From Faecalibacterium prausnitzii (lineage in GTDB: Bacteria > Bacillota > Clostridia > Oscillospirales > Ruminococcaceae), in the NCBI RefSeq assembly GCF_003287495.1, contig NZ_PRLE01000001.1, forward strand, positions 682,001 through 746,000: DNA of 64,000 bases, written 5' to 3'. Below, one piece after another: positions 40,489 to 55,788 of this stretch (positions are counted from its first letter, which is position 1; every line of letters begins with the position of its first letter). A program made the position numbers and the translations under genes. The notes under the pieces were generated by a model, which saw only the letters and a program-made list of their open reading frames with translations, had not been told where the DNA came from and ran no database searches.

Positions 40489-40618
40489 GGCAGGCACCTC
40501 CCATTTACACATCATTGAACGGTGGAGCGTTCTTTCAAAATAGTGTTTCGTATAATGGATGTGCCACAGTTTTTAACCGAATGCAAGACTTTTTCCAAAA
40601 TAAAAGCCGCCCTCATTC

Positions 40619-42346
40619 TCAGATCGTCCAGTTCTGGCTTGCCGACTGCAGATCCACCATGTGGGTGTACAGTCCCTTCCGGGCGTACAGCTCTGCCGGG
40701 CTGCCCTGCTCGGCCACGATGCCACCCGACAGCACCACCACCTGATCCGCACCGGCTACGGTGCGCATCCGGTGGGCGATGATGAGGACGGTCTTGTTTT
40801 TTATGAGCCGGGATAGTGCCTCCTGAATGGCAGTTTCGTTTTCCACATCCAAGCTGGCGGTGGCCTCGTCCAGCAGAATGATGGGCGCATCCTTCAGGAA
40901 GGCGCGGGCGATGGAAATGCGCTGACGCTCGCCGCCGGAAAGAGCGCAGCCGTTCTCGCCGATGTTCGTGTTCCACTTGTCCGGCAGCTTCTCGGCAAAT
41001 TCTTCGCAGTTTGCCAGCTTTGCCGCCGCCAGAACCTCCTCGTCGGTGGCACCTTTGCGCCCCAGACGGATATTTTCCAGGATCGTGTTGTCAAACAGGG
41101 TCACATCCTGAAATACGATGGAATACAGGCTCATGAGCTTTTCCGGGTCGATCCGGGAAACCTCCATGCCGCCCACGGTGATGCTGCCCTTCTGGTAGTC
41201 CCAGAACCGTGCCGCCAGCCGGGAAACAGTAGTTTTGCCGCCGCCGGAGGGGCCCACCAGTGCCGTGACCTCCCCCTGCTTTGCGGTAAAGGAAACATCC
41301 CGCAGCACCGTTTCGCCGGAGTTATAGGCAAAGCCCACATGGTCGAACACGATATCGCAGCCCTGATTGGTCAGCTGCTCGCTGCCGGTCTGCAGGGGAG
41401 CGTCCAGAATCTCATTCATCCGCCCCACATTGGTGCGCATGGCGATGACCGCCGCCAGATTCTGCAACGCGCCCTGCATGGGGTCGTACATCCGAGAGGC
41501 CGCCATCAGGAACAGAAACAGAGTCAGCACGTCGATGCTGCCCTGCACCAGCAGCACCGCGCCGGTGAGTGCCACCGACGCAATGCCCAGCTTGAGCACC
41601 ATGCCCGCAGAGGACACGAACAGCGCTGTTGTCAGTTCTGCCACGATGGACTGCTTTTCCACTGCCCGAATTTTGTCGGAAAGGCCGGACAGATACCTCT
41701 GCTCCGCATTGCTGGCTTTCAGGTCGCGGAGGGTCTCGATGTACTCCTGAATGCCGTCCGCACAGGCCATTTTCGCCGCCATGGTCCTGGCCTGCACCTT
41801 GTCCTGTACCCGATAGCTGCCCACCACGATGGCAGCAGATACCGGAATGACCCACAGTGCCGCCAGAGCCATCCGTCCGTCAAAGGCGAACAGGCTCAGG
41901 GCAATGAGCACGGTAGAGATGAGGGAACCGAACAGACCGGGGATGAAGTGGGAGCAATCCTTTTCCAACACCTCGCAGTCTGCCATGATGGTGCTGGTCA
42001 GGTCGGCAAGGTCCCGCTTGCCGAAAAAGGACAGGGGCAGCTTGCGCAGCCGCTCCGCAAGGGTCAGGCGGCGGGTGCCGCTCTCTTTATAAGTAGTAAA
42101 ATAGGTGCCGTTATACTGGAACCATGTGGTCAACAAGATCAGCGCAAAGCAGGCCGCACACCCCAGCAGATAAAAGGCGGTTCTCCCGCTCGTGGAGCCT
42201 GCAAGCAGATCTTTTACCAGGAGATACAGCAGCCCGGTGGGCAGCATGAACGCCATGTTCTGGAACGCACAGGCCAGAACGCCCTTTACAAGCCCCTTTG
42301 CGCCCTCCGGGGAACTGGCCGTGGCGTGTTGAATTTTTTCGATCAT
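40619..42346 (-). CDS. ABC transporter ATP-binding/permease, second half of heterodimer
   Basis: A 575-residue type IV exporter-fold half-transporter. About six membrane helices lie in residues 20-300, then a nucleotide-binding domain with Walker A GPSGGGKTT, signature LSGGERQRISIARA and Walker B IILLDEATASLD. The start is 3 bp after the stop of its partner. The pair, with an AraC gene upstream, resembles YbtPQ/IrtAB-type systems, which use exporter folds to import metallophores. An export role cannot be ruled out from sequence. Confidence 0.88.
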   Translation of the reverse strand: MIEKIQHATASSPEGAKGLVKGVLACAFQNMAFMLPTGLLYLLVKDLLAGSTSGRTAFYLLGCAACFALILLTTWFQYNGTYFTTYKESGTRRLTLAERLRKLPLSFFGKRDLADLTSTIMADCEVLEKDCSHFIPGLFGSLISTVLIALSLFAFDGRMALAALWVIPVSAAIVVGSYRVQDKVQARTMAAKMACADGIQEYIETLRDLKASNAEQRYLSGLSDKIRAVEKQSIVAELTTALFVSSAGMVLKLGIASVALTGAVLLVQGSIDVLTLFLFLMAASRMYDPMQGALQNLAAVIAMRTNVGRMNEILDAPLQTGSEQLTNQGCDIVFDHVGFAYNSGETVLRDVSFTAKQGEVTALVGPSGGGKTTVSRLAARFWDYQKGSITVGGMEVSRIDPEKLMSLYSIVFQDVTLFDNTILENIRLGRKGATDEEVLAAAKLANCEEFAEKLPDKWNTNIGENGCALSGGERQRISIARAFLKDAPIILLDEATASLDVENETAIQEALSRLIKNKTVLIIAHRMRTVAGADQVVVLSGGIVAEQGSPAELYARKGLYTHMVDLQSASQNWTI

Positions 42347-42349
42347 CCT

Positions 42350-44119
42350 TTACCCCTCCTTTGCGACCTTCCACTGCACCGAGGCCTGATAATCCTGCCA
42401 CATCCGGGCAAACAGGCCGTTCTGCGCACACAGTTCGTCCTTTGTGCCGGTCTCCGTAATACGCCCATCCTGCACTACATAGATGCAGTCGGCGTTGGCG
42501 ACGGTAGACAGGCGGTGTGCGATCATCAGCACGGTTTTGCCCTTGGCAAGCCGGGCAAAGGCTGCCTGCACCTTTGCTTCATTGTCCGGGTCGGCAAAAG
42601 CGGTAGCCTCGTCCAGGATCAGGATGGGCGCATTTTTCAGCATGGCGCGGGCAATGGCAATGCGCTGCTGCTCGCCGCCGGACAGATACACGCCCTTGGT
42701 GCCAATGACGGTATGGATGCCCGCCGGGAACTTTTCTATAATATCCATGCACTGCGCCGCCTTGAGCGCTGCCAGCACCTCGGCTTCGGTGGCCTGCGGT
42801 CTGCCCAGACGGACGTTATCCAGAATGCTGCCCTTGAGCAGGCGGCTGTTCTGGAACACAAAGGAGATGGTGTCCATCAGCTCTTCCTTGGGGATATCCC
42901 GCACATCCGCTCCGCCCACCTGGACGCTGCCGCTCTGCACATCAAAGAACCGGCAGACAAGGTTTGCCAGCGTGGATTTGCCGCCACCGGAGGGGCCTAC
43001 AAAAGCCACAGTCTGTCCCGGCCGGATCTCCAGCGAAACACCCTTGATGACCTCGGTTTTTCCGTCGTAGCTGAAATGCACATCCTGCAACGTGACAGAG
43101 GAATCCTTCGGGTGCTGCGGAACAGCCTGCACCTGCATGGGCGCTGCTTCCAGCACCGAGTCGATGCGCGCCAGCGCATCCGCCACCACCATCTTGCTTT
43201 CGCTCATGTACATCATACGGGTCAGAGTCAGGGAGATCACCGGCGTGATAATGATGTAGAACAGCAGGTTCAGCAGAAATTCCGAAGTCACACCGTTCCG
43301 GGTGAACAGAAGCCCACCTACAATCAAGAAAGCAAACACACCGTTGATTGCGGCAGTATAGAGCATCATCGGCATCCGCAGCTCTTTGGTGTAGGCAATG
43401 ACCCACTTTTCGTACTCATCAATGGTCGCTTTGAATTTTTTGAACGAAAAGACGGATTGCCCGAAGGTCTTGACTACCGGGATGCCGCGGACATACTCCA
43501 CGGCCTCGTTAGACATTGATTCCAACGCATTACCGTATTGCCGCATTTTGTCTGCCATCCGCCTTCCTGTCATGGCGGACATGATGACGAAGCCCAGTGC
43601 CACCGGAACGAGACTCAGCAGACCCAGCCGCCAGTCGAACACAAGCAAAAGAACCAACAGACCTATGGGTGTTGCCATTGCATTATATTTGTCCGGCAGC
43701 TGATGGGCGAGAAATGTCTCCGCTGCGCCAGTACTCTCGTGGATGATCTTGCGCAGCTTACCGCTGCCAAACGTCTCCGTAAAGCCCAGCGGCAGTGTGG
43801 CAAGGTGTTCGGAAACCTCCAGCCGCAGATTGGTCGCCACCCGGAACGCCGACAGATGGGAGCACATCAGTGCCGCAATGTAAATGAGGTAAGCCAGCAC
43901 CGCAAACAACACTGCCCTCCAGCCGTAATGGGGGATGTTCACCGCCTGCGCATAGTTTGGCGCGGCGTTCAGCACATCCCGCAGGATCTTCCAGATGTAC
44001 ACAAAAGGCACCAGCGCCACCAGCGCACTGACCGCAGACAGCACCCACGAAGCGTAGGTGAAATATCGGTAGTTCCCGGCGTAGCCCATCAGCCGGGAAA
44101 GATCGGACTGTTTTTTCAC
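42350..44119 (-). CDS. ABC transporter ATP-binding/permease, first half of heterodimer
   Basis: A 589-residue half-transporter with six membrane helices and a nucleotide-binding domain: Walker A GPSGGGKST, signature LSGGEQQRIAIARA and Walker B ILILDEATAFADPDNE. The D-loop AFADPDNE, rather than SALD, is a feature I associate with the YbtP/IrtA-like branch. A short sequence with a hairpin separates it from the lipoprotein gene upstream. Confidence 0.88.
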   Translation of the reverse strand: MKKQSDLSRLMGYAGNYRYFTYASWVLSAVSALVALVPFVYIWKILRDVLNAAPNYAQAVNIPHYGWRAVLFAVLAYLIYIAALMCSHLSAFRVATNLRLEVSEHLATLPLGFTETFGSGKLRKIIHESTGAAETFLAHQLPDKYNAMATPIGLLVLLLVFDWRLGLLSLVPVALGFVIMSAMTGRRMADKMRQYGNALESMSNEAVEYVRGIPVVKTFGQSVFSFKKFKATIDEYEKWVIAYTKELRMPMMLYTAAINGVFAFLIVGGLLFTRNGVTSEFLLNLLFYIIITPVISLTLTRMMYMSESKMVVADALARIDSVLEAAPMQVQAVPQHPKDSSVTLQDVHFSYDGKTEVIKGVSLEIRPGQTVAFVGPSGGGKSTLANLVCRFFDVQSGSVQVGGADVRDIPKEELMDTISFVFQNSRLLKGSILDNVRLGRPQATEAEVLAALKAAQCMDIIEKFPAGIHTVIGTKGVYLSGGEQQRIAIARAMLKNAPILILDEATAFADPDNEAKVQAAFARLAKGKTVLMIAHRLSTVANADCIYVVQDGRITETGTKDELCAQNGLFARMWQDYQASVQWKVAKEG

Positions 44120-44152
44120 GGAAAGACCTCCTTCAAATAATTTTTATGCAAA

Positions 44153-44186
44153 AATGTGCCGTGGCGTTTTTGCTCCACAGCACATT
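44153..44186 (-). terminator. Partial terminator between lipoprotein and ABC genes
   Basis: AATGTGC/GCACATT stem with GTGG/CCAC inside. On the minus strand a TTTTTGC run follows. Some transcription may stop here. Confidence 0.5.
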
Positions 44187-44193
44187 CTGCGTA

Positions 44194-44973
44194 TTAACCT
44201 GCTAGATTTTCCGTACAGAACAGCTCAATGCAGTTGTCGATCATAGTCTGGTCGCAATCCGTAGAAATGCCAGATGCCACCCAGTAAGCATATTCGCCTG
44301 CATCGTACTGGCTCAGAGCTTCTGCATCCGAACCATAGCGAAACTCAATGTGGTAGGTTTCCGCACTGGTGTCTGGCGCGAGGAAAAAGTAGGTGAACTC
44401 GCCGGAATCGGCATCATCACTTTCAAACTCATACAGTCCATGCACAGGCTCCATGCCAATGTAGTGATAGGTATGGGAGAACAGCACATTGCCGTCCTTA
44501 TCGGTGCCGGAAATGGTAGAAGTTTCACCATCGAAGGTCAAGGTCGCAAGGCTATTGGTAAAGCCGCAGAAATAGGCTCCGCCGCCGTTGGCATACGCTT
44601 TGACTGCATCTTCGCCGTAAACATCACCTGTCACCATAGAGGACAGCTTCTCAAAAGCAGCTTCGGCATTGTCCTCGCCCACGAGAGCGGTACAATCATC
44701 CAGCCATGTCTGCTGATATTCGTCCGCCAGAATCACCGGCCACAGTTCCTGATAGCTGCCTGTTAGGTCGTTCAGCAGCTGTGCAGCGGCAGCTGCGTTT
44801 TCATCCGCCGCTGCGGATGTCGTTTCGGAAACAACAGAGCTTGTAGTGCTCTCTGCCGCAGTGCTTGCAGTAGAAGACACTGGGGATACCGCCGTGCTGC
44901 CGCAACCGGCCAGCAAAGAGACCGACAGAGCCAGTACGGTTACCGTACCCAGAACTTTTTTCATCATACGCAT
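44194..44973 (-). CDS. ZinT-like metal-binding lipoprotein
   Basis: A 259-residue lipoprotein. The signal peptide ends in the lipobox LLAGC (Cys24), followed by a 50-residue Ser/Thr/Ala linker. The C-terminal half resembles the ZinT (YodA) lipocalin-like metal-binding domain: FSHTYHYIGMEPVHGLYEF, FFLAPDTSAETYHIEF and YGSDAEALSQYDAGEYAYW. The histidines in these blocks could bind zinc or another metal. The start MRMMKK follows GGAGGGG; an upstream ATG has no ribosome site. It precedes the ABC pair and is preceded by a DtxR-like site, so it may present metal or metallophore to the transporter. Confidence 0.75.
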   Translation of the reverse strand: MRMMKKVLGTVTVLALSVSLLAGCGSTAVSPVSSTASTAAESTTSSVVSETTSAAADENAAAAAQLLNDLTGSYQELWPVILADEYQQTWLDDCTALVGEDNAEAAFEKLSSMVTGDVYGEDAVKAYANGGGAYFCGFTNSLATLTFDGETSTISGTDKDGNVLFSHTYHYIGMEPVHGLYEFESDDADSGEFTYFFLAPDTSAETYHIEFRYGSDAEALSQYDAGEYAYWVASGISTDCDQTMIDNCIELFCTENLAG

Positions 44974-45010
44974 GGAAAATCCCCTCCAGAAAAATCGTTT
45001 GATTTTGTAA

Positions 45011-45024
45011 TTAGCGTCCACTAA
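45011..45024. promoter_or_regulatory. DtxR-like half-palindrome upstream of the lipoprotein gene
   Basis: TTAG-N6-CTAA on the minus strand (TTAGTGGACGCTAA). It has the same spacing as the stronger site at 53006-53025. Confidence 0.45.
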
Positions 45025-45081
45025 CCACAAACAGATTTTACTGGAACAGGCCGTTTTTTACAAGAACCAAACAGACAAAAT

Positions 45082-46038
45082 CTATCCAATCGGACGCATC
45101 TTCCTATACTCCGTAGGCGTCATGCCGGCTGCTTCCCGAAATGCAGAAGAAAACTTATTCGGATTTTCGTACCCGACCCGATGGGCGATTTCAGCAACCG
45201 TGCAATCGGTTTCGAGTAGTAGCTTCTGTGCCAGCTGCAGCCGGTACTCTTTCTGATACGCATAGACCGAGCTTCCGTAAATGCCTTTGAAACAGCTTTT
45301 TAATGCCGTAGGCGAAAGGCCGACCTCCTGTGCAAGCTGTTCGATTGTACGGTGAACTGTCAGTTCCTGCGTAAGAAGAGCCGCAGCCTGCTTCACACAC
45401 TCCACCTGATGCTGATTGAAATACTCTGTCTGCTGCACATCTTCCCTGTTTTTCAGCCGGGTCAGAATATGCAGCAACTCCAGCACTTTCAGCCGAAGAT
45501 AGCCGGTGTCCGGCACAGAATGCGCTGTGTAAAGCTCTGAAAAAATATGAGCAATGGTCGGTTCTGACCGCAGGATACAGCAGCGGTTTTCCGTGCAGAT
45601 GTACCGCCGTATGACATCAAGGTCTACGCCGTACCATTCCATTTGTTTCCGCATTTCCGGCGAAATCGCATCCAGATCCAGTAGGATGGTGATGCCGTGG
45701 TAGTGCCGCAATGGGAAGCAGGAGGACGACTTTTTGCGCGCTGCTGCACACACCGCAAAATCCCCTGCTGCCAGATAGCAGCAGCTATTTGCCCCAAAAC
45801 TGCACTCGTAACGCCCCACGCGGCAGTGGTTGATCTCAATGACATTCCGCATTGGTGCCGTGGCTTCCTCAAAGAATGCAAGGTGCATATCGTTATAATA
45901 CAGCTCTGCACCCAAAAACAGTGGACAGATAATCATACTCCCAGTTCCTGTCTCATTGGAAAATTTCACGGTGTGAGGCATTTCAGTCGAAGTCGTTTCT
46001 TCTATGGAAAGATCAAAAAGTGATTTATACATAGCCAT
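45082..46038 (-). CDS. AraC family regulator (YbtA-like position)
   Basis: A 318-residue regulator. The N-terminal 200 residues are a sensing domain with several Cys (SCCYLAAGDFAVC, NRCCILR) unlike the sugar-type cupins. The C-terminal domain is the paired helix-turn-helix (TIEQLAQEVGLSPTALKSCF; VGYENPNKFSSAFREAAG; TPTEYRKMRP). In metallophore systems such as yersiniabactin, an AraC protein next to the transporter binds the ferric ligand and switches uptake on. The same role is inferred here. Confidence 0.88.
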   Translation of the reverse strand: MAMYKSLFDLSIEETTSTEMPHTVKFSNETGTGSMIICPLFLGAELYYNDMHLAFFEEATAPMRNVIEINHCRVGRYECSFGANSCCYLAAGDFAVCAAARKKSSSCFPLRHYHGITILLDLDAISPEMRKQMEWYGVDLDVIRRYICTENRCCILRSEPTIAHIFSELYTAHSVPDTGYLRLKVLELLHILTRLKNREDVQQTEYFNQHQVECVKQAAALLTQELTVHRTIEQLAQEVGLSPTALKSCFKGIYGSSVYAYQKEYRLQLAQKLLLETDCTVAEIAHRVGYENPNKFSSAFREAAGMTPTEYRKMRPIG

Positions 46039-46089
46039 TCTCTTTTCCTGAAGATTCGCTTTTTCTTACTGATTCGCAGACGTGAACTG

Positions 46090-46866
46090 TCAAATTCCAT
46101 TTCTCTGCAAAAATGTTTCCATCAAATCAAGATACCGTTCCAGCTCCGACGCAAGCAGTGCCGGATGATTGATGATCTCGCCATGGCCGAAACCGGGGAA
46201 ACAGCGGACGATCAGGCTCGGATATGCCGTCCGCAGCCGCTGGATGGCCTTTTTCATGTGCCCTTCTTTTTCTCCGTACCAGCAGGCGACCTTTGCATCG
46301 GGCTGTACCAAAAAGTCCGTCCGATAGAGATAAAGCCCTGCCGCCCAAGTGGCACGGACGGATTCCAAGCTGATATGATCCGGGATACGGCGGAGCATAG
46401 TCTGCATTCCCTGCTCCGTCTGCCCCATAAAGCGCAGCGCCCATGCAGGCATGTACTTTTCGTGTGCCGTTCGATATTGCTTTTGCGGCATGACCTTCAA
46501 AATCAGTCGATTCAGCACCCCGAAATCCAGATACTCCGGCCCACTGAGGATCATCCGATCGATCTGAACGGTTGGGGAAGCCTTCAGAAAAACAGCCGGT
46601 CCACAGCCCAGCGACTCTGCAAAAAGCAGATCCAACTGTCCGTCAAGCTCTTTTTCAATATAAGCGGCCAACTTGTCCGCCTGATCCCGGGCAGTCGTGT
46701 AGTTCGTTTCACCGGTTCCATCAAAGCCGTCGAAGCTGACGGCATACACGCAGAATTTCCTTTCCAGCAGCGGGATCAGATCCTCAAACTGCCGCCAGCA
46801 CATAAGATTTCCGTGCAGCAGCATCATGGTCTTTCCCTCTATATTGCCGAATCGTTTGATTTCCAT
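46090..46866 (-). CDS. Alpha/beta hydrolase
   Basis: A 258-residue serine hydrolase. The oxyanion loop is LLHGNLMCW, the nucleophile elbow is AESLGCG, and the catalytic His is in FGHGEI. The strand VYAVSFDGFDGTGET has counterparts in two other hydrolases of this cluster (starting at 51112 and 52929). The start is MEIKRFGN after GGGGAGG. Neighbouring ATC-hydrolase-like genes suggest it works on a small product with an ester or amide bond. Confidence 0.85.
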   Translation of the reverse strand: MEIKRFGNIEGKTMMLLHGNLMCWRQFEDLIPLLERKFCVYAVSFDGFDGTGETNYTTARDQADKLAAYIEKELDGQLDLLFAESLGCGPAVFLKASPTVQIDRMILSGPEYLDFGVLNRLILKVMPQKQYRTAHEKYMPAWALRFMGQTEQGMQTMLRRIPDHISLESVRATWAAGLYLYRTDFLVQPDAKVACWYGEKEGHMKKAIQRLRTAYPSLIVRCFPGFGHGEIINHPALLASELERYLDLMETFLQRNGI

Positions 46867-46886
46867 ACCAATCTGCCTCCCCGCTA

Positions 46887-47489
46887 TTATCTGATCTTCA
46901 TGCAAAAATCGCAGCGGTCATTACCGCGCCCAAGCGTCATGGTTCTCTCCCAGATCAGCTTCGGATGCAGCCCGGTATAGCTGATGTCGTCGCTGTCGCA
47001 AAAGCAGCGGCACAGCTCCGGGCAGCCGTATTCTGTGCAGGTGTCGTGATAGGGACACTCCATCATATCCACACGCCAGACGCCGTTGCCGGTCTGCAGT
47101 TCTTTTGGGGCAAAGCCCGCCGCCGGGCCGAAAACGCTCCGGGTGGATTTGACGAAAACGCCGGGAACAAGGCGGTAAAGCCCCGGTATGTGCAGCAAGG
47201 CGGCAAGCTGTTTGTGGCTCGTTCTCGCCAGCCGCTCCACATAGCCGTGAACGGTTTGCAGTGCTTCTTCTTTCGGCATGACCCGCTGCAAGGTCTCGTA
47301 GGCCGAAATGCCCGGCAAGATCTGCCGCTTGAGGTGGTATTGCTTTTCCTTGCTTGCACCCGCGTTTTCAGCCAGCAGCGCATTCAGGCGCATATCGAAA
47401 GCGGTGTTCAGTTCCTTTGCCTGCGCGGGAAAGCGTTGCGCCGCAGTCTCCCGGAAATCACGGGAAAGATAGGTTTCCTTCCTCTTCAT
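46887..47489 (-). CDS. ATC hydrolase-like protein (L-2-amino-thiazoline-4-carboxylate hydrolase family)
   Basis: A 200-residue protein. The C-terminal CPYHDTCTEYGCPELCRCFCDSD, HPKLIWERTMTLGRG and CDFCMK are the hallmark of the ATC hydrolase family, whose named member opens a thiazoline ring on the way to cysteine. The start overlaps nothing and lies 6 bp after the sister gene. Many relatives have unknown substrates, so only the family is secure. Confidence 0.8.
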   Translation of the reverse strand: MKRKETYLSRDFRETAAQRFPAQAKELNTAFDMRLNALLAENAGASKEKQYHLKRQILPGISAYETLQRVMPKEEALQTVHGYVERLARTSHKQLAALLHIPGLYRLVPGVFVKSTRSVFGPAAGFAPKELQTGNGVWRVDMMECPYHDTCTEYGCPELCRCFCDSDDISYTGLHPKLIWERTMTLGRGNDRCDFCMKIR

Positions 47490-47495
47490 CGTCCG

Positions 47496-48128
47496 TTACC
47501 CTTTCTTTTTGTACCCGCAGTCGCAGTAGGGCCCGCCGGAGGCAAGGGTGTACTGCCGCACAAAATTTGTCACACCGCCCGCTTCGCTCATGGTGTAGTC
47601 CAGATGGCACAAAGCGGGGGTCAGGTCGTACAGCCCCAGCTCCTTCATCAGCACACAGATGCCGCACTTGGTAAAGCGTCCCTCGTAGCCGCTGCCATCC
47701 GGGTATTCGTAAAACTCCATGTTCCACGAGTAGGGGTTGCGGTCGGCGGCTTTCAGGGCGGCAGTGGCTTTCATAGCGGCAATATCCTTTGGGGTGAACT
47801 TGCTTTTTCCGCTTTTGCGGCAGAACCACTGCATGGGCTTTGTCATCATGGATCTTGCATAGTAATCCGTCATCCTGTCCACCTCCGGACGTTGCGGCAT
47901 GGAGAGGATGAACGCGCCGAGCATTGCGCAGTTGACGATGTTCATCTTGAAGCGGTCCGCTTTTTCAAACTCCGGCAAGCCAGCAATGATCTGCCGGTAT
48001 TGCGGCTTTGCCTTTTTCGTGATGGCTTTTGCGGTGGCTGCATCATAGCCCAGCACAGTGGTCAGCTGCTTTCGGAACGACGGTGCAAACAGAGCCCACA
48101 TACCGAAAGGCATTCCAGCGTATTTCAT
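47496..48128 (-). CDS. ATC hydrolase-like protein, second copy
   Basis: A 210-residue relative of the next gene. It carries CGICVLMKELGLYDLTPALC, HLDYTMSEAGG and the late PYCDCGYKKK. The cysteine pattern differs from its sister (fewer Cys before the HLDY block), so the two may form a heteromer or act on different substrates. ATG 48128 follows GGGAGGTA and overlaps the reductase gene by 4 bp. Confidence 0.72.
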   Translation of the reverse strand: MKYAGMPFGMWALFAPSFRKQLTTVLGYDAATAKAITKKAKPQYRQIIAGLPEFEKADRFKMNIVNCAMLGAFILSMPQRPEVDRMTDYYARSMMTKPMQWFCRKSGKSKFTPKDIAAMKATAALKAADRNPYSWNMEFYEYPDGSGYEGRFTKCGICVLMKELGLYDLTPALCHLDYTMSEAGGVTNFVRQYTLASGGPYCDCGYKKKG

Positions 48129-49051
48129 TGCAGGTACCTCCCGGCTTCCGTTTCCAGTGCCTGCCATACCGGGTAGGCTGCGCCATGTTCATCAAAAAAT
48201 TTCTTGAGGTCCCGGTTCAGCGCGCTCATTTCGTCGATGGCGTTCATAGCATGGTCGGAGGCGCAGAGTTTGCCCAGCGAGGTAGCGCACATCAGCTTGA
48301 AAAAGTGCAGGCAGGTCTTGCGGTACTTTTCCCCTTCAAAGTCTACATCCGCTTTGGGCAGAATGGCGTGCCCGGCATCTCGGATGGCGCGGTATCCCTC
48401 GATGTTGGCATCCAGCACACGGTTCAGGTACGCGGTATCTCCCCGGAGCTTTTTCAGGTCGCCGTCTGTCTTATAGCAGGCGAAGGCCGCAGGCATCACA
48501 AACGCGGCATGGCAGAGCAGATAATCCTCCATGTTCGGCTCGTAAACGACCTTGTATTTTGTGCCGTGAAAGATGCGCCCGATCAGCTGTTTATTGGAGA
48601 TTGCACCCGGCAGCTGTCCGATGGTGATCTTTTTCAGGTCGATGGAGACCACCCGGTCAACCTCCCGATGCCCCGCAGAAAGCGCAAAGGCAAACAGGAC
48701 GTTCTTTTCCGGCAGTGCCGCCGCCAGCGCCCTCGCCTGCACATTGTTCCCCACAAATACGATGTTTTTCGTCCGATTCGCCCGCAGCGTGTCCAGAGCG
48801 GAATCCAGCTGTGTATAACGCAGGACCACAAAGATCACATCGTACTTTGCATCCGGCGCAAGCTCCGTCACCACCGGAATGCGGCTGACCGAAGTGCAAA
48901 GCGAAAACTTATCCTTGATCCGCAGACCGTTCTGCTTGATCTCCACTGCCCAGTTTCCTCGCGCAAGCAAGGTGACATCCTTTCCGGCGCGCAGCAGATT
49001 TCTTGCCAGATTGCACCCCAGAACGCCTGCACCATATACCAGAATCTTCAT
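48125..49051 (-). CDS. Ketopantoate reductase-like (ApbA/PanE) protein
   Basis: A 308-residue NADP-binding oxidoreductase. The N-terminus MKILVYGAGVLGCNLARNL is the Rossmann loop GxGxxG. ALSAGHREVDRV and the helical C-terminal domain fit the ApbA family. It is not expected to be the pantothenate enzyme here; in this cluster it probably reduces a keto or imine group of a specialised metabolite. Confidence 0.85.
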   Translation of the reverse strand: MKILVYGAGVLGCNLARNLLRAGKDVTLLARGNWAVEIKQNGLRIKDKFSLCTSVSRIPVVTELAPDAKYDVIFVVLRYTQLDSALDTLRANRTKNIVFVGNNVQARALAAALPEKNVLFAFALSAGHREVDRVVSIDLKKITIGQLPGAISNKQLIGRIFHGTKYKVVYEPNMEDYLLCHAAFVMPAAFACYKTDGDLKKLRGDTAYLNRVLDANIEGYRAIRDAGHAILPKADVDFEGEKYRKTCLHFFKLMCATSLGKLCASDHAMNAIDEMSALNRDLKKFFDEHGAAYPVWQALETEAGRYLQ

Positions 49052-49153
49052 TTCTTGCCTCCAAATCTGATCTTCACGATCTGCATTTTCATCCCGTTGT
49101 CTCCGACCTTGGCGAGAAACCGGAAAAAACCGCTGACGGAAGGGTCTTTCCGA

Positions 49154-49639
49154 TCACTGTACTGTCATCATTGCCGCCAGTACCGCCGCTATGACTGCCA
49201 TGCCCACCGTGCCGAACAGCCACTTTTTCTGCTTGTCTTTTGCAGTAATGTAGGGCTTCAGATCCTCCGTTCCTGAGATCGTCCATGCGTTCGTGTGCCC
49301 CACCCAATAGCCGTCAACCAACAGGCGGTCCATGAGATTCATAACGGACAAGATGACGAGTAACTGCCAGAAACCCTGAACAAAGCCCTTTGCACCGTTT
49401 ATCCCATAGACACAGACCAGCACATAGCCGATATAGCCGGGAATGCAGACTGCTTTGAACAGCAGGCTGTTGCGTCGGATGCGTTCCGGGCTTGTAAGCC
49501 CCAGTTTTACGCACCGCTGCTGCACCGCCGGGCTGTAAAGATGCACCATCCCAACAGCCCCCTTACGGATGCCCGCAGCGCAGATCAGAACCAGCAGAAC
49601 TCCCAACCCAAGACCTTCCAGAATCACCTGTAAAAGCAT
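49154..49639 (-). CDS. Four-helix membrane protein, unknown function
   Basis: A 161-residue protein with helices at about residues 7-24, 64-82, 87-103 and 140-158. The signature RLLVDGYWVGHTNAW-ISGTED between helices three and four has a counterpart in the next gene upstream (LLVIDLLWWRNTKR). I do not recognise a named family. It may be a membrane enzyme or accessory permease of the cluster. Confidence 0.65.
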   Translation of the reverse strand: MLLQVILEGLGLGVLLVLICAAGIRKGAVGMVHLYSPAVQQRCVKLGLTSPERIRRNSLLFKAVCIPGYIGYVLVCVYGINGAKGFVQGFWQLLVILSVMNLMDRLLVDGYWVGHTNAWTISGTEDLKPYITAKDKQKKWLFGTVGMAVIAAVLAAMMTVQ

Positions 49640-49757
49640 TCCTTATTCCTCCTGTATCCGTTTTCATCCCGGTATTCGGGATGTTCCTTTACGTATGGAT
49701 CCTTATCGCCGCAGATAGTGTAATCACACTTACAGCCATCCCTCTACGATGTATGGT

Positions 49758-50252
49758 TCAAAACGCCGTGACGATCAAGGCTGACAGTGCAGCGACTGCG
49801 GCAAACAACGGGATACCGCGCCAAAACGATTCGATATGCTTTTTCGGATTTTGATAGTATTTCTTCTCCGGCAGGAAAGAGAAGCGGGTACGTTTTGTGT
49901 TGCGCCACCAGAGAAGATCGATCACCAAAAGATCGAACAACCCAAGCCCCTCGCTGAACGCAAGAAAGTACCAAAATGCCGACAGATAACCGTCCAAGTT
50001 CAGCACGCCTCTCAGCGCAAGTCCTAAAGCGGAAAACACGACTGTGAAAAGCAAAAGATTGCTGAGCCAAACGGCAGCGGTGGATTTCCTCTTCGGAACA
50101 GCCTTTCCAAGCTGATGGTCGCTTCGCACACGGTTTTGAACTTCTTCGGGATAAGAACGCAGCCCCATGAGATTTTTCTTGTCCGTGCCTGTTCCAAGAA
50201 AACATACGCCCCAATACAGAAAATAAAAAGCAATTGCAACGATGATTTTCAT
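49758..50252 (-). CDS. Four-helix membrane protein, paralog of the neighbour
   Basis: A 164-residue protein with four predicted helices (about 3-20, 62-84, 90-112 and 145-163). FDLLVIDLLWWRNTKRTRF matches the motif of the adjacent membrane gene. The paired arrangement suggests a heterodimer. The function is unknown. Confidence 0.65.
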   Translation of the reverse strand: MKIIVAIAFYFLYWGVCFLGTGTDKKNLMGLRSYPEEVQNRVRSDHQLGKAVPKRKSTAAVWLSNLLLFTVVFSALGLALRGVLNLDGYLSAFWYFLAFSEGLGLFDLLVIDLLWWRNTKRTRFSFLPEKKYYQNPKKHIESFWRGIPLFAAVAALSALIVTAF

Positions 50253-50314
50253 CAGCCTATATCTCCGTTGAATCCAAAAAGCTGCGGATAGAGCATTCTG
50301 ATTTTTCCTTTCTT

Positions 50315-51112
50315 TCAGCTTCTTTTGTTTTGAGCTGCCGATGTGTGTGTCAGGAACTCCATGATTCTCCGATAAAAATCCTGCGGATACATCATCACAA
50401 GCTCCGCGTGATCCATCTTCGGAATTTCATGCAGTTGCGCCCGCGGAAAATATTGCTTTATAAAGCAGATATTGCTGTGTCGCGCCTGCTTTTCCTCTTC
50501 GCCGTACCAATATGTGATTTGGCAGCCCATTTCAGCCGGCTTCGTCGGCAGAGTATAATTGTTCGCCGACCAGAAAATGTTGCGGACGGTGCGTTTTGAA
50601 TAGGTTTTCAGATACGCCGCCAGCGCATCATACTCCTTCACTGGATCGCGCCCCGGCATCGTCCAGCGCTCTGGCGGATAGACCGTCTCAAGGACCTTGC
50701 GGCTCTTCGCTATGAGCCTGAAACCAAGATTGTCACGCAGGCAGGCGAGACGGCGCAAAATCAGCGGCATCCGATACGGCGTAATGCCTGCATCAATAAC
50801 GGCGCGCTCGACCGGGATTTTTCCCAAGGCGAGAAAGCGTGTCAGACACGCACCGCCCAGAGAACAGCCATATGCCGCGTTCAAGTGGGTAATGCCGCGC
50901 GCTTGCAGCCAATCTGTTACCTCGTCTACTGTCGTCTCCACAGAGATAAAGTCTTCTCCCGTTTCGCCGTGACCGTCATAGACGATCTGAATCACATGGT
51001 AATCCTGCGAAAGCAGGCCAACCGAGTCGGCGAACGCCCACTCCGGCTCCGCCGTGCACGGCAGAAACAGCAGCGTCTTTTCATGTTCTTTTCCATATTC
51101 CAAAGTTCTCAT
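50315..51112 (-). CDS. Alpha/beta hydrolase
   Basis: A 265-residue hydrolase. LLFLPCTAEPEW is the oxyanion loop, YGCSLGGACL carries the nucleophile Ser, and KMDHAEL the catalytic His. VYDGHGETGED and YWYGEEEKQARH mirror VSFDGFDGTGET and CWYGEKEGH of the 46090 gene. It is therefore a paralog, not a chance neighbour. Confidence 0.85.
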   Translation of the reverse strand: MRTLEYGKEHEKTLLFLPCTAEPEWAFADSVGLLSQDYHVIQIVYDGHGETGEDFISVETTVDEVTDWLQARGITHLNAAYGCSLGGACLTRFLALGKIPVERAVIDAGITPYRMPLILRRLACLRDNLGFRLIAKSRKVLETVYPPERWTMPGRDPVKEYDALAAYLKTYSKRTVRNIFWSANNYTLPTKPAEMGCQITYWYGEEEKQARHSNICFIKQYFPRAQLHEIPKMDHAELVMMYPQDFYRRIMEFLTHTSAAQNKRS

Positions 51113-51202
51113 ACCATCCGCCCCTTGGTTTTTGCAGCATTATTTTTTCGGATTACGCTCCGTCATCGCGCCAAAGAATGCCGGTGCGCCGCCTGCACTT
51201 CC

Positions 51203-52060
51203 TTATCTTCCCACGCCCTTCAAGTACCCGCTTTTTGAGTTTTCCTCAGTATCATCGGATTCATCATAGGCATCGTAAAGCGCATTGGGGTCGTGGGCTC
51301 TTTTCTTGAAAGGCGAGCACAGCTCATTTTTGTGCGCAAAGGCAAAATTGTCCGTCCATCCCGTGTGACCGGTGATGAAATATGGATGCAGCCCACGTGC
51401 GCGCAGTTTCCGCTCCAGCTCCGCCAGTGACTGCACAGCCAGCTTATTGTCCTCCGCCAGCGAAGAAATGAAGCTGTAGCCGCCGTCCGCGCCAAACCAG
51501 ATAGTATCGCCGGTAAAGAGATATTTCCCGTCCACAAGGTATACCATGTGCCCCCATGTATGACCGGGAACGAGAAAGCACTCGATTCTGATCCCGTCGA
51601 TGTCGATGACCTCATCGTCGTGCAGCAGCACTTTTTCATTGTTGATCGTCACCTGCGGCAGCTTGTAAAGGTGGTAAATGACCCTGCGGCGCACCTCGCC
51701 GGTCAGATAGCGGTTCTCGATCTCGCCGATGTACAGATTCGCATTCCGGAACAGCCTCGGACTGTCTGCTTCCACCGCACCCACATGATCGGTGTCCTGA
51801 TGGGTGATAAGGATATGGTGTATCGACTTCGGATCAATCCCAAGCCAGCCCATTTTTTCGGCAAGGCGGTCGTAGTTATATCCCGCATCGACCATAATGG
51901 TGGTATCGCCTTTGCGGTAGAAGAAGATGTTCGCCACCCATTCGCGCACGCAGGCAACATTCTCGTCGATCCAGCCGGTGTTCAAAGGCTTGAAGATCTC
52001 CTTGCCCCGGTACATCCAGCTCATTGCTTTTCTTTGAAATTCCGTTGCCTTTTTCGACAT
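51203..52060 (-). CDS. Metallo-beta-lactamase-fold hydrolase
   Basis: A 285-residue enzyme with the metal motif THQDTDH, then PGHTWGHM, TGDTIW and a final ITGHTGWTDN that supply the remaining ligands of a dinuclear site. It resembles the large group of MBL-fold hydrolases acting on thioesters, lactones or phosphodiesters. In this cluster it may open a lactone or thioester in the imported compound. Confidence 0.88.
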   Translation of the reverse strand: MSKKATEFQRKAMSWMYRGKEIFKPLNTGWIDENVACVREWVANIFFYRKGDTTIMVDAGYNYDRLAEKMGWLGIDPKSIHHILITHQDTDHVGAVEADSPRLFRNANLYIGEIENRYLTGEVRRRVIYHLYKLPQVTINNEKVLLHDDEVIDIDGIRIECFLVPGHTWGHMVYLVDGKYLFTGDTIWFGADGGYSFISSLAEDNKLAVQSLAELERKLRARGLHPYFITGHTGWTDNFAFAHKNELCSPFKKRAHDPNALYDAYDESDDTEENSKSGYLKGVGR

Positions 52061-52161
52061 GATCGCACCTCATTTCTGTGCTGTGATGCACAGACAGCCC
52101 TTTTTATTTTTGTGGTTCTGGATCTTACAAAATCCTGCTTGCTCCAGATACGTTTTACCGT

Positions 52162-52929
52162 TCACAATGCAATGCTTTTTACCAGATGCGCCCACTGCTC
52201 CGGGTGACAGGCCAGCAATTCCTCGTGCTGCAAGTTCTGCTCATGGAGAACAGGATGTGCAAAATGCTGCTGATACCGGGCACGATATTTTGCGCCCATT
52301 TTCAGGGCGTAAAAAATATGGATTTCGGTACCGGGCACATGGATCTTATCCGGCAGCGGAGTGATAAGATCGGAGTAGAACTGATTTTTACAGCTCTGCA
52401 TGGTCACATAAGGGCGGGCCTCACCGAACATTTTCAGAAAGGCTTTGACATAATCCCCCGACTCTTTAGCACACTTGTCCAGACGTTTTTGGAGAAATTT
52501 CGCCTTAATCTTTCCGTCCCGCACCACAGGGTAGATCAATGGCAACAGAAAATCCGTCTGCAAGCTTGCCGTCAGCGGCGATGCCTGATCCAAATCGGAG
52601 CTACCCAGAATGCCGTAGTCCATGTGGATATTCTTCCGCGCCGCCAGCAGCCCCACAAACGAGCCGCCCAGAGAGCAGCCGTAGGCCGCCCGGATGTGAC
52701 CGCCGCAGTGGGTCTTGAGGTAGGCCTCGATCTTTTCGGTCTCCTCCAGCATGGTGGGAAATTCGGTCTGTTCAGTCTCATCAAAGCCATCGTAGCTGAC
52801 GCACAGCACCTGGAAGCTGTCAGCCAGAAGCGGGATCACCGCACCGAAATTGCTTTTCCAATGGCAACAGGTGCCCGGCAGCAGCAACAGCACCGGGGCA
52901 TCCTCTGCACCAAAATGGTAAATCTTCAT
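52162..52929 (-). CDS. Alpha/beta hydrolase, first gene of cluster
   Basis: A 255-residue hydrolase. LLLLPGTCCHW is the oxyanion loop, YGCSLGGSFV the nucleophile elbow, and QHEELL the catalytic His. VSYDGFDETEQ again matches its two paralogs. It is the first gene of the run, directly behind a promoter overlapped by a DtxR-type palindrome. Confidence 0.85.
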   Translation of the reverse strand: MKIYHFGAEDAPVLLLLPGTCCHWKSNFGAVIPLLADSFQVLCVSYDGFDETEQTEFPTMLEETEKIEAYLKTHCGGHIRAAYGCSLGGSFVGLLAARKNIHMDYGILGSSDLDQASPLTASLQTDFLLPLIYPVVRDGKIKAKFLQKRLDKCAKESGDYVKAFLKMFGEARPYVTMQSCKNQFYSDLITPLPDKIHVPGTEIHIFYALKMGAKYRARYQQHFAHPVLHEQNLQHEELLACHPEQWAHLVKSIAL

Positions 52930-53005
52930 CCTGATACGCTCCTTCTCTATTTATTTTCCACCTGTAAATAGAAGAGATATATTTCTTCGTATAGGGCAGA
53001 GTTTC

Positions 53006-53025
53006 AAGTTAGGCAAAGCTAACTT
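53006..53025. promoter_or_regulatory. DtxR/IdeR-type iron box over the cluster promoter
   Basis: AAGTTAGGCAAAGCTAACTT: a perfect 7-bp palindrome around GCAAAG, one base from the GTTAGGCAAACCTAAC form known for clostridial DtxR-family iron regulators. On the minus strand it covers a TTGCCT -35, with TATACG 17 bp downstream. It should repress the 52929-to-40619 genes when iron is replete. Confidence 0.65.
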
Positions 53026-53154: not shown

Positions 53155-53368
53155 TCACCCCAGTGCTACGTCCAGCACCATCATCACGCTGAAGCCCACC
53201 GCAAAAAACACCGTTCCAACGTTGGAGTGCTGCCCCTGCGACATTTCCGGGATCAGTTCCTCCACCACCACATACAGCATGGCTCCGGCTGCAAAGCTGA
53301 GCAGATAGGGCAAAGCAGGCACCACGATGCCTGCCGCCAGAATCGTCAGCACTGCCCCGATGAGCTAT
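53155..53368 (-). pseudogene. Truncated ZIP family metal transporter
   Basis: The 71 C-terminal codons of a ZIP transporter: VPALPYLLSFAAGAMLYVVVEELIPEM is the conserved helix-V region, with the metal-site Glu pair, followed by a last helix. The frame runs straight into repeat B at 53367 with no start codon region; about two thirds of the gene is missing. Confidence 0.85.
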
Positions 53369-53552: not shown

Positions 53553-53590
53553 ACAAACAAAGAACTATCTGTTTATTAAAGGAGTTTTCC

Positions 53591-54757
53591 ATGAAAAAGA
53601 TTTCCCGCCGTTCGTTTATCACCGCTATGGCTGCTGTAAGTGCAGCCGGTGTTCTGGCCGCCTGCGGTTCTTCTGCCAGCAGCACGGCTTCTTCTGTGGC
53701 TTCTTCCGCTGTATCCAGCGAAGCAACTTCCTCTGCCGCATCTATGGATGAGACCGGTACCCATACCGTCGTAGACCACGGCGGCAACGAAGTAGAAGTG
53801 CCTAATAAGGTCACCCGTGTCGTCATCGACCAGATTCCAATCCTGTCCACCTACATGGCTTATTTTGAGGGCAGTGCTCCCTACATCGTGGGTTACTGCG
53901 GCTCTTTCAAGTCGGTCATTTCTGACACTGTATTGAAGAATATCGCCCCGGAGCTTCTGGAGTCCAGCGATACGGTCTATGCTCAGAGCGACCTGAACAT
54001 CGAGGAGATCATGAAACTGAACCCTGATGTTATCCTGTACAATGCTGGCAACTCCTCCCATGCCGAAATCCTGAAGGCCAGCGGAATCCCCTCCATCGGT
54101 TTCGCTACTGTGGGCGCATCTACGGAAGCTGATCCCATGGAACGTTACGAAGAGTGGCTGAAGCTGCTGGAGCAGATCTTCAACGAACCGGGCAAGACCG
54201 ACGCCTTTGTTGCTGCCGGTGATGAGATCGTGACCGATGTGGAAGCCCGTATTGCGGAAATTCCTCAAACGGATCGTCCCAGTGCGCTGATTCTGTGGAA
54301 GTATGCAGACGGTGTGCCGCAGGTATCCGGTCAGGGCACCTTTGGCACCTACTGGATGAAGCGTCTGGGCGTAACAGACAAGGCACTGGAAGCCACTGGC
54401 TTTGCACAGGCAAGCATGGAGCAGATTTATAGTTGGAATCCCGATATTCTTTTCTTGGATGGTCCCGGCCTGCAGCCCCTGCGCACCGAGGACGTGCTGA
54501 GCGGGAATGTGGACGGTGCTGACTTCTCCACCCTGACTGCCGTGAAGAGCGGCCGAGTCTACAACACTACGCTGGGTATGTGGAACTGGTTCACCCCGAA
54601 TCCGGATGCTCCGCTGGTGCTGGCATGGCTGGCCTGCAACACCTACCCGGATGCTTTTGCCGATTATCCGCTGGGCGATACCATCAAGGAATATTACAAG
54701 ACATGGTACGGCTACGATGTGACAGATGACGAGTTGGAGGAAATGCTGCTGTACTGA
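53591..54757 (+). CDS. Siderophore/heme-type ABC substrate-binding lipoprotein
   Basis: A 388-residue extracellular binding protein. The signal has a Tat-like RRSFIT followed by the lipobox LAAC (Cys25), then a Ser/Ala linker. The body fits the class III (FepB/BtuF) periplasmic-binding fold with DLNIEEIMKLNPDVILY. ATG 53591 follows AAAGGAG. It leads an operon with a FecCD permease (1 bp overlap) and an ATPase. The ligand is not identifiable: siderophore, heme or cobamide. Confidence 0.92.
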   Translation: MKKISRRSFITAMAAVSAAGVLAACGSSASSTASSVASSAVSSEATSSAASMDETGTHTVVDHGGNEVEVPNKVTRVVIDQIPILSTYMAYFEGSAPYIVGYCGSFKSVISDTVLKNIAPELLESSDTVYAQSDLNIEEIMKLNPDVILYNAGNSSHAEILKASGIPSIGFATVGASTEADPMERYEEWLKLLEQIFNEPGKTDAFVAAGDEIVTDVEARIAEIPQTDRPSALILWKYADGVPQVSGQGTFGTYWMKRLGVTDKALEATGFAQASMEQIYSWNPDILFLDGPGLQPLRTEDVLSGNVDGADFSTLTAVKSGRVYNTTLGMWNWFTPNPDAPLVLAWLACNTYPDAFADYPLGDTIKEYYKTWYGYDVTDDELEEMLLY

Positions 54758-55788
54758 TGAAAGATACCATCTGGATCAAAAAAGGCCGGTTCACTCCTCT
54801 GGCTGTGGTATTGATGTTCGCTTTTCCCCTTGTGACCGCACTCATCTGCCTGTGCTTTGGACGAATGAATGTTCCGGTAGGCGAAGTTCTCACAGCTTTG
54901 CGCACTGCTCTGACGGGTGGGAGCACCTCAAATGTACAGAACTACTCCATCGTCATCAATCTGCGGCTGCCCCGCATTCTGACGGCCATCATCGTCGGCG
55001 CAGGTCTGTCTTGCGCAGGCAATACCTATCAATCCTTATTCTCCAATCCGCTTGCCACACCGGATATTTTGGGTGTAACCAGCGGTACCTGTGTGGGTGC
55101 AATTCTTGCTATTATCCTGTCTTGCAGTATTCTGGAAACGCAGCTCATCGCCTTGGTCTTTGGCCTGATTTCCGTCTGTTTTACTCTGAAAGTCGCAGGC
55201 AAGAGTGATGGGCGTTCTATGGTTTATCTGGTGCTGGCCGGTACGATTGCATCCTCTCTGTTCAACGCACTGGGTTCGCTGTTGAAATATACTGCCGATC
55301 CGCAGGACAAGCTGCCGGAGATCACCTACTGGCTCTTGGGCAGCTTTACCAGTGCCAGTTACCAAAAGATCCTGATTGGCTGCCCACTTATCGTTGCTGG
55401 AATCATCATCATCTATCTGCTGCGCTGGCGGCTGAACATCCTTTCACTGAGTGATGACGAGGCTCGTACCAGCGGCATCAACATCAAACAGACCCGGATG
55501 CTGTTTATTGTTGCATCTACGCTGATCACGGCTTCTGCCGTTTCCATGTGCGGTCAGGTGGGCTGGATTGGTCTGCTGATTCCGCACGCATCCCGGATGC
55601 TGGTTGGAAGCAACAACCGTTATGTGGTGCCCCTCAGTCTCAGTCTGGGAGCCAGCTTTATGATCCTGATCGACACCCTGTCCCGCAGCATCAGCATCAT
55701 CGAGCTGCCTCTTTCCATTCTCACCGCTATCATCGGTGCACCGGCGTTTATTTCTCTGCTGAACAAAACAAGGAGCAACCTGCAATGA
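54757..55788 (+). CDS. FecCD family iron-type ABC permease
   Basis: A 343-residue permease with about ten membrane helices. Family marks are NLRLPRILTAIIVGAGLSCAGNTYQSLFSNPLA near residues 68-100 and GQVGWIGLLIPHASRMLVG near 270. It is part of the three-gene importer with overlapping starts. Confidence 0.95.
   Translation: MKDTIWIKKGRFTPLAVVLMFAFPLVTALICLCFGRMNVPVGEVLTALRTALTGGSTSNVQNYSIVINLRLPRILTAIIVGAGLSCAGNTYQSLFSNPLATPDILGVTSGTCVGAILAIILSCSILETQLIALVFGLISVCFTLKVAGKSDGRSMVYLVLAGTIASSLFNALGSLLKYTADPQDKLPEITYWLLGSFTSASYQKILIGCPLIVAGIIIIYLLRWRLNILSLSDDEARTSGINIKQTRMLFIVASTLITASAVSMCGQVGWIGLLIPHASRMLVGSNNRYVVPLSLSLGASFMILIDTLSRSISIIELPLSILTAIIGAPAFISLLNKTRSNLQ

What the first reader, a model, noticed from the sequence alone, without database searches (positions are those of the whole stretch)
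40619..53025. Iron-box-controlled cluster for uptake and breakdown of a metallophore?
Seen: thirteen minus-strand genes behind a DtxR-type palindrome (53006-53025), with a second TTAG-N6-CTAA site at 45011. Known families: YbtPQ/IrtAB-like ABC halves, AraC next to the transporter, ZinT-like lipoprotein, three serine hydrolases, two ATC-hydrolase relatives, MBL hydrolase, PanE-like reductase. Inference: the cell imports a foreign metallophore, possibly thiazoline-containing, and dismantles it inside. I know of no described system with this composition.
Basis: partly seen in the sequence, partly recalled or inferred. Interest (0 to 1): 0.82.

Follow-up and report, generated by a model that had tools for sequence, protein, structure and literature searches.

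The report
Iron-controlled, mix-and-match metallophore operon
A gut bacterium carries an operon behind an iron-type switch that pairs a siderophore-type transporter with an interchangeable set of small-molecule-modifying enzymes; parts of it recur, reshuffled, in other Clostridia, and what compound it handles is not known.

Summary
Thirteen intact minus-strand genes (40619-52929) lie behind a perfect 7+7 bp palindrome (53006-53025) conserved upstream of the cluster in sister species. Similar boxes precede a FeoB-DtxR operon in this genome, and the core equals the centre of the published EqbA operator (equibactin locus). ABC_A is closest to YbtP/IrtA, ABC_B, less clearly, to YbtQ. The lipoprotein folds like ZinT/AdcA (low-confidence model); sequence profiles miss it.

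New here: the operon is a mosaic. Sister clusters carry different subsets of the same ordered genes, adding methyltransferases, an acetyltransferase, a ZIP gene or a third ATC-like protein. Missing genes often leave only their 3' ends; three, perhaps four, such scars lie in the window. AraC and lipoprotein alleles switch together. Relatives of the first hydrolase recur in other Clostridia (397; 55 of the best 80 loci have an upstream box) with the same enzyme families, but only 9 of 80 hold a close relative of the transporter.

Thiazoline breakdown is not supported: the 'ATC hydrolase' model has an H-NOX/V4R-like fold. Best reading: iron-starvation-induced use and remodelling of a metallophore, probably foreign since cluster-bearing genomes lack NRPS and NIS synthetases. 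Direction, substrate and iron response are unproven.

The parts
53006..53025 (.). Box 1: AAGTTAG-N6-CTAACTT palindrome, 76 bp upstream of the first gene
   Evidence: footprint in 8 sequences
52162..52929 (-). abhA, alpha/beta hydrolase (GCSLG motif; S86 and H235 invariant in 5 aligned sequences)
52073..52156 (-). Scar: last ~28 codons of a SAM methyltransferase (family f5) that is whole in some sister clusters
51203..52060 (-). MBL-fold metallohydrolase (THQDTDH motif)
50315..51112 (-). abhB, alpha/beta hydrolase
49758..50252 (-). TM2, read by eye as a small membrane protein; no Pfam or NCBIfam match
49640..49757 (-). Probable scar: 3' end of a third PF14196-like gene (ATC3), seen by eye in one frame; not among the tblastn hits for the window
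49154..49639 (-). TM1, read by eye as a small membrane protein; no Pfam or NCBIfam match
49051..49161 (-). Scar: last ~37 codons of an LCMT-like methyltransferase (family f8) that is whole in some sister clusters
48125..49051 (-). PanE/ApbA-type reductase
47496..48167 (-). ATC2, PF14196 family
46887..47489 (-). ATC1, PF14196 family; predicted H-NOX/V4R/Bet3-like fold; C145, C164, D167, C193 invariant in 26 sequences
46090..46905 (-). abhC, alpha/beta hydrolase (AESLG motif; start codon uncertain)
45082..46038 (-). AraC-type regulator (type-1 allele)
45011..45024 (.). Box 2: TTAG-N6-CTAA, just upstream of the lipoprotein gene
44194..44973 (-). Lipoprotein with ZinT/AdcA-like predicted fold (low-confidence model)
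42350..44119 (-). ABC_A, YbtP/IrtA-like permease-ATPase half (GTG start)
40619..42346 (-). ABC_B, YbtQ-like permease-ATPase half
53158..53361 (-). Scar: last ~68 codons of a ZIP-type metal transporter gene (family by my reading)
53585..54757 (+). FecB-type binding protein; a one-mismatch box lies at 53534-53547, no more than chance by itself
54757..55788 (+). FecCD permease
55791..56588 (+). FecE-type ATPase
56585..57238 (+). Cupin-type protein (by reading and weak NCBIfam matches)
57313..61185 (-). CoA-dehydratase-activase-type protein, 1290 aa
61270..61283 (.). Box 3, between the activase and a divergent Crp/Fnr-type gene

Best explanation
An operon derepressed in iron starvation for using and remodelling a small metallophore. 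A DtxR-family repressor, most likely a short EqbA-like one, sits on the box when iron is sufficient (inferred). Without iron the operon is read; the ZinT-like lipoprotein catches a metal-ligand complex outside, the YbtPQ/IrtAB-type ABC pair carries it across the membrane (probably inwards), AraC senses the same ligand, and the cytoplasmic set (alpha/beta hydrolases, MBL hydrolase, PanE-type reductase, PF14196 proteins, and in sister clusters methyl- and acetyltransferases) chemically alters the ligand so that the metal is released or the ligand changed. Shown: gene content, conserved boxes, transporter kinship by bit score, predicted fold of ATC1, allele co-switching, gene turnover with 3' scars. 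Inferred: iron response, direction, ligand and every chemical step. Species may differ in enzyme set because they meet different ligands; deletions that spare the start region of the next gene survive as scars (inferred).
For: Box: invariant left arm, near-invariant right arm, variable centre. In the 80 hydrolase loci (1.216 Mb) TTAG-N6-CTAA occurs 164 times, against 1-39 for the 11 other words of the same letters and 0-16 for 15 other spacings; 260 of 282 pattern matches lie within 250 bp upstream of a gene start (a perfect site counts as two matches). In this genome boxes precede DUF3793-FeoB-DtxR and an ECF/ABC-pair/short-DtxR locus (names other than DtxR by my reading). The published EqbA operator has GTTAG-ATGTAT-CTAAC at its centre and EqbA binds in EMSA with Fe2+, Zn2+ and, incompletely, Mn2+ (PMC3672683 passages). 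Transporter: ABC_A scores YbtP 330, IrtA 321, MsbA 232, Sav1866 227 bits; ABC_B scores YbtQ 289, Sav1866 257; profiles agree. No NRPS/NIS in the cluster-bearing genomes among 31 searched. AraC and lipoprotein alleles co-switch in 9 of 9 clusters that hold both, window included, while ABC_A/B are 91-99% identical to the window's. Near the hydrolase family (within 5 kb, same strand) HMA-type proteins occur in 10, P-type ATPases in 7 and FeoB in 4 of 80 loci (names by my reading).
Against: In Streptococcus equi the YbtPQ-like pair EqbK/EqbL was not needed for the import-linked phenotype and was discussed as a possible exporter. For ABC_B, IrtA (239 bits) scores below Sav1866 (257) and no IrtB chain is among the 60 shown. 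Only 9 of 80 hydrolase loci hold an ABC_A relative of 45% or more; ABC_A-labelled genes are not enriched near the hydrolase (13 of 476 within 3 kb, 14 of 316 at 3-6 kb, 8 of 277 beyond), and AraC labels are rather commoner far away (8, 6, 12). Of 40 neighbourhoods of ABC_A orthologues only 2 hold an abhA relative and 2 a PanE relative, and 23 have a box within 400 bp of ABC_A. 2 of 10 Faecalibacterium clusters lack ABC_A in the fetched stretch (L053, L058). Methyl- and acetyltransferases are not breakdown enzymes. AraC and lipoprotein genes are adjacent, so co-switching may be linkage. 25 of 80 hydrolase loci lack a box within 260 bp upstream of the hydrolase or its operon, and only 32 of 80 have one within 250 bp of the hydrolase itself. 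No expression data.
Confidence: 0.4

Rival explanations
1. A biosynthetic and tailoring operon: the enzymes build or decorate an endogenous, non-NRPS metallophore from primary metabolites, and the ABC pair exports it or re-imports it. Different enzyme subsets give each species a private chemotype.
For: Methyltransferase-, acetyltransferase-, reductase- and hydrolase-type genes recur and are shuffled between species; methyltransferase labels are enriched near the hydrolase family, 50 of 476 genes within 3 kb against 7 of 277 beyond 6 kb. EqbKL, a YbtPQ-like pair, was not needed for import, and an alpha/beta-hydrolase-type protein, EqbN, was needed for product activity in reconstituted E. coli (PMC3672683 passages).
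Against: No scaffold-forming enzyme recognised in the cluster; no NRPS or NIS synthetase in cluster-bearing genomes. Transporter closest to proven importers.
Confidence: 0.28
2. A defence operon: under iron starvation, when uptake systems are open, the enzymes inactivate siderophore-antibiotic conjugates or toxic chelators and the ABC pair pumps them out.
For: Variable modifying enzymes and species-to-species turnover look like a resistance repertoire; the ABC fold is shared with drug exporters.
Against: ABC_A scores clearly higher against YbtP/IrtA, and ABC_B somewhat higher against YbtQ, than against MsbA, Sav1866 or BmrA where these are listed; lipoprotein with a metal-recruitment-type fold.
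Confidence: 0.14
3. A zinc or mixed-metal operon: the box responds to zinc or manganese and the cluster handles a zinc ligand.
For: ZinT/AdcA-like fold, ZIP-type gene and its scars beside boxes, EqbA binding also with Zn2+ and Mn2+.
Against: Boxes precede a FeoB-DtxR operon in this genome; ZinT sequence similarity is below detection.
Confidence: 0.1

Closest known systems
Equibactin locus eqbA-N of Streptococcus equi (PMC3672683; abstract and passages seen)
   Same: DtxR-like repressor with a GTTAG-N6-CTAAC operator centre, a YbtPQ-like pair (EqbK/EqbL) beside other ABC genes, an alpha/beta-hydrolase-type protein, carried on a mobile element
   Different: It has an NRPS; none is seen here. The window cluster has PF14196 proteins, an MBL hydrolase, a PanE-like reductase, AraC and a ZinT-like lipoprotein, which the passages I saw do not mention there
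YbtPQ (yersiniabactin) and IrtAB (mycobactin) importers
   Same: ABC_A: best half-transporter matches YbtP and IrtA; ABC_B: best match YbtQ; adjacent genes
   Different: ABC_A lacks the N-terminal extension of the long IrtA chains (match from residue 23 here, about 295 there); no biosynthesis genes recognised; substrate unknown
ZinT/YodA and AdcA
   Same: Predicted fold
   Different: No sequence family match; H167 and H208 are the only invariant His in 8 homologues; that ZinT uses three His is recalled, not tested
[quoted passage not shown]
   Same: Both proteins exceed the Pfam cut-off; conserved Cys; similarity of PF14196 to HNOB and V4R described in PMC5847659 (passage)
   Different: Activity and thiazoline substrate untested; ATC2 and ATC3 types are only 16-18% identical to ATC1, which suggests different ligands

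Membership tests
YbtPQ/IrtAB-type siderophore ABC transporters | Closer in sequence to YbtP/IrtA and YbtQ than to exporter half-transporters | tested here: met
   By bit score: clear for ABC_A, modest for ABC_B; no tree built. Doubled P-glycoprotein chains rank first because two matched halves are summed
YbtPQ/IrtAB-type siderophore ABC transporters | Two adjacent genes for a heterodimer | tested here: met
   3 bp between ABC_A and ABC_B
YbtPQ/IrtAB-type siderophore ABC transporters | Imports a ferric siderophore | not testable with these tools
   EqbKL precedent argues caution
DtxR-family iron-box regulon | Palindromic operator conserved upstream of iron genes | tested here: met
DtxR-family iron-box regulon | Classical 19-bp DtxR/IdeR consensus (recalled) | tested here: not met
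   the core equals that of the EqbA operator
DtxR-family iron-box regulon | Metal-dependent repressor binding | not testable with these tools
   three DtxR-family matches in the genome
Siderophore biosynthesis cluster (NRPS or NIS) | Condensation domain or IucA/IucC synthetase | tested here: not met
   PF00668 in 1 of 31 genus genomes (G023, which has no PF14196), PF04183 in 0 of 31
ZinT/AdcA | Fold | tested here: inconclusive
   Foldseek hits to AdcA and ZinT are the only five at E <= 0.001, but the model has mean pLDDT 65
ZinT/AdcA | Sequence family match | tested here: not met
PF14196 ATC hydrolase | Domain score over cut-off | tested here: met
   115.5 and 76.7 bits, cut-off 28.1
PF14196 ATC hydrolase | Cleaves an aminothiazoline C-S bond | not testable with these tools
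   none

The most novel reading that the evidence does not exclude
Clostridia of the gut and elsewhere share a previously undescribed, combinatorial, iron-box-controlled toolkit in which a conserved siderophore-type transporter can be coupled to interchangeable AraC/lipoprotein recognition pairs and to an evolving set of tailoring enzymes, so that each species makes or remodels its own non-NRPS metallophore chemistry; gene slots are emptied and refilled, leaving 3'-end scars that hold the next gene's start region.
Probability: 0.22. Interest if true: 0.86.

Novelty: new variant of a known kind. Interest (0 to 1): 0.64.

Why it matters
How butyrate producers such as Faecalibacterium, which lack NRPS and NIS siderophore synthetases in the genomes searched, compete for iron is poorly known. 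If the reading is right, their iron economy rests partly on a shuffled enzyme toolkit that NRPS/NIS-based genome mining does not see, and the box gives a direct way to list the regulon and its species-specific variants. It would also give a biological setting to many PF14196 and unnamed membrane proteins.

Tried and rejected
Thiazoline breakdown as the theme: dropped, because the PF14196 model resembles H-NOX, Bet3 and the PoxR/MopR phenol sensors and a paper already links these families. Heme breakdown: considered because of the H-NOX likeness and because a tolyporphin-cluster gene carries this hydrolase name (PMC8401325, one passage); I recognised no heme-degrading enzyme but did not search for one. 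Classical DtxR consensus: no match. Box rarity as proof: rejected, 20 genome matches against 15 for the control word. ZinT by sequence: not found.

Literature: ten searches listed no paper that I could recognise as describing this cluster; they cover open-licence papers only, several lists were partial (10 of 483 shown; 20 of 27; 8 of 11), and beyond the listings I saw passages of four papers.

Limits of counts: the 80 hydrolase loci are the best 80 of 397 relatives and include near-duplicates and short contigs; the Fisher tests ignore this and leave out the 3-6 kb bin. Control words: 12 matches against 282, the latter counting perfect sites twice. Further Faecalibacterium stretches with only parts of the set (L060, L061, L065-L068, L077-L079) were mapped but are not among the ten clusters counted. 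Alignments used parts of what was held: 16 of 41 ABC_A, 16 of 40 ABC_B, 26 of 46 PF14196 sequences. Gene calls in scripts are mechanical and many family names are my reading.
Full report
Setting. The window is C8:682001-746000 of a 2.68 Mb genome in 19 contigs, rated 100% complete by the tool.

Anatomy. Thirteen intact genes lie head to tail on the minus strand, from abhA (52929) to ABC_B (40619), with gaps of -43 to 118 bp. Families: three alpha/beta hydrolases, an MBL-fold hydrolase, two small proteins without a family, a PanE/ApbA reductase, two PF14196 proteins, an AraC regulator, a lipoprotein and two ABC half-transporters. On the other strand follow FecB, FecCD and FecE-type genes and a cupin-type gene, then on the minus strand a CoA-dehydratase-activase-type gene with a box at 61270. 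Parts of that second module stand near the first elsewhere: L122 holds a FecC-like gene, two cupin genes and an activase (50%) before a TetR gene, box, ABC_A and ABC_B, and L153 and L192 hold activase, box, Crp and cupin near a hydrolase relative.

The box. AAGTTAG-GCAAAG-CTAACTT at 53006-53025 is a perfect palindrome. In eight upstream sequences from Faecalibacterium and Gemmiger the arms are kept and the centre varies; L051 has one broken arm. The second site (45011) is kept before the lipoprotein gene in three sister clusters and has one mismatch in two type-2 clusters. In the same genome boxes stand before DUF3793-FeoB-DtxR, a flavodoxin gene, a pyruvate-formate-lyase-type gene and a locus with ECF-type genes, a second ABC pair (first half 44% identical to ABC_A) and a short DtxR protein (most names by my reading). 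In the 80 hydrolase loci the word has 164 copies, against 1-39 for other words of the same letters and 0-16 for other spacings. The operator of EqbA, a metal-dependent DtxR-like repressor studied by EMSA, has the same core GTTAG-N6-CTAAC. So the site is very likely a real repressor site of this kind; that it responds to iron in this organism is inferred.

The transporter. Among solved half-transporters ABC_A is closest to YbtP (330 bits) and IrtA (321), well above MsbA (232) and Sav1866 (227). ABC_B is closest to YbtQ (289) against Sav1866 (257), TM_0288 (245) and IrtA (239); no IrtB chain is among the 60 shown. Profiles of 16 orthologues give 453 and 414 against 350 and 342 for ABC_A, and 380 against 350 for ABC_B. 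Orthologues at E <= 1e-120 are found in 52 of 393 class genomes, 36 of 220 genera. In 40 of their neighbourhoods an AraC/TetR-type gene lies within two genes upstream in 26, a box within 400 bp of ABC_A in 23, both in 16. Direction is open: EqbK/EqbL were not needed for import in S. equi.

The mosaic. PF14196 genes occur in 15 of 31 genomes of the genus, own included, and in 19 of 61 relatives. I compared ten clusters from ten genomes (L049-L058) with the window; 8 of the 10 hold ABC_A. Gene order is largely kept (by eye) but content varies: some carry a UbiE-type methyltransferase (f5), an LCMT-like one (f8), another methyltransferase (f39), a GNAT-type acetyltransferase, a third PF14196 protein, further hydrolases, or a ZIP-type gene beside the box (names by my reading). 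Where a gene is missing, its last 24-70 codons often remain: of 51 partial family pieces in 20 loci plus the window, 34 are C-terminal, 13 internal and 4 N-terminal (two loci are repeats, pieces cut by stretch ends are included). The window keeps the tails of f5, f8 and the ZIP gene and, by eye, of the third PF14196 gene. A simple explanation is that deletions survive when they spare the start region of the next gene. AraC and the lipoprotein come as two allele pairs (type 1: window, L049, L054, L057; type 2: L050, L051, L052, L055, L056), with no mixed case, while ABC_A/B are 91-99% identical to the window's. This fits one ligand recognised by both, but adjacency alone could explain it. Mobilisation-type genes lie upstream of several sister clusters, and pieces of a serine recombinase lie beside the window cluster and L049 (partly by my reading).

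Wider distribution. A scan of the genome collection (84,980 species genomes by its description) with the hydrolase alignment found 397 relatives. The best 80 loci bear mostly Oscillospiraceae, Lachnospiraceae, Ruminococcus or Clostridium-type titles; a few metagenome bins are titled Bacteroides, Alistipes or Muribaculaceae, which I did not check. In 32 of 80 a box lies within 250 bp of the hydrolase, in 55 of 80 within 260 bp upstream of it or of a gene before it in its operon. Within 3 kb the same families are enriched over regions beyond 6 kb: methyltransferases 50/476 against 7/277 (p 2e-5), PF14196 31/476 against 5/277 (p 0.002), PanE 16/476 against 1/277 (p 0.004), small membrane proteins 35/476 against 9/277 (p 0.013), MBL 11/476 against 1/277 (p 0.03). 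ABC_A, ABC_B and AraC labels are not enriched. HMA-type proteins (10 loci), P-type ATPases (7) and FeoB (4) recur as well. Only 9 of 80 hold an ABC_A relative of at least 45% identity, so enzymes and transporter are separable modules under one kind of switch. In G202 (L091), of another family, hydrolase (52%), PanE (37%), AraC, box, ABC_A and ABC_B stand together.

The PF14196 proteins. An AlphaFold model of ATC1 (pLDDT 95) matches H-NOX (best E 3e-4), Bet3 and the PoxR/MopR phenol-sensor domains, with low TM-scores (mostly 0.3-0.45). C145, C164, D167 and C193 are invariant in 26 sequences down to 10% identity. PMC5847659 had already linked PF14196 to HNOB and V4R, with a shared cluster of three Cys. 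The proteins may bind or cleave a ligand; thiazoline is not indicated.

Verdict. The finding is real and larger than reported. It is a new variant of metal-repressor-controlled metallophore loci, with an unusual combinatorial enzyme set. Use of a foreign metallophore is the best guess because the cluster-bearing genomes lack NRPS and NIS synthetases, but synthesis or tailoring of an own non-NRPS ligand is a serious rival.

Noticed in passing
57313-61185 and 61270-61283: CoA-dehydratase-activase-type protein of 1290 aa with its own box; activase, box, Crp and cupin recur together in L153 and L192, and activase plus cupins stand near ABC_A/B in L122, so it looks like a second box-controlled module.
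   Followed up: partly
38847-40515: Two pieces of a serine recombinase (resolvase N-terminal part and zinc-ribbon part) next to the cluster end; similar pieces follow ABC_B in L049.
   Followed up: no
L071 (own genome C16:46000-62000): A locus with ECF-type genes, a second YbtP-like pair and a short DtxR protein behind boxes: by my reading an eqbA-HIJKL-like arrangement; no NRPS domain is found in this genome.
   Followed up: partly
L072 (own genome C17:16000-28000): A second box-controlled cassette in the same genome with methyltransferase-type genes f5 and f8, next to FMN-binding and NapH-type genes (names by my reading).
   Followed up: partly
51203-52060: The MBL hydrolase has THQDTDH instead of the usual HxHxDH metal motif (motif recalled), and a weak match to the ODP family.
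   Followed up: no
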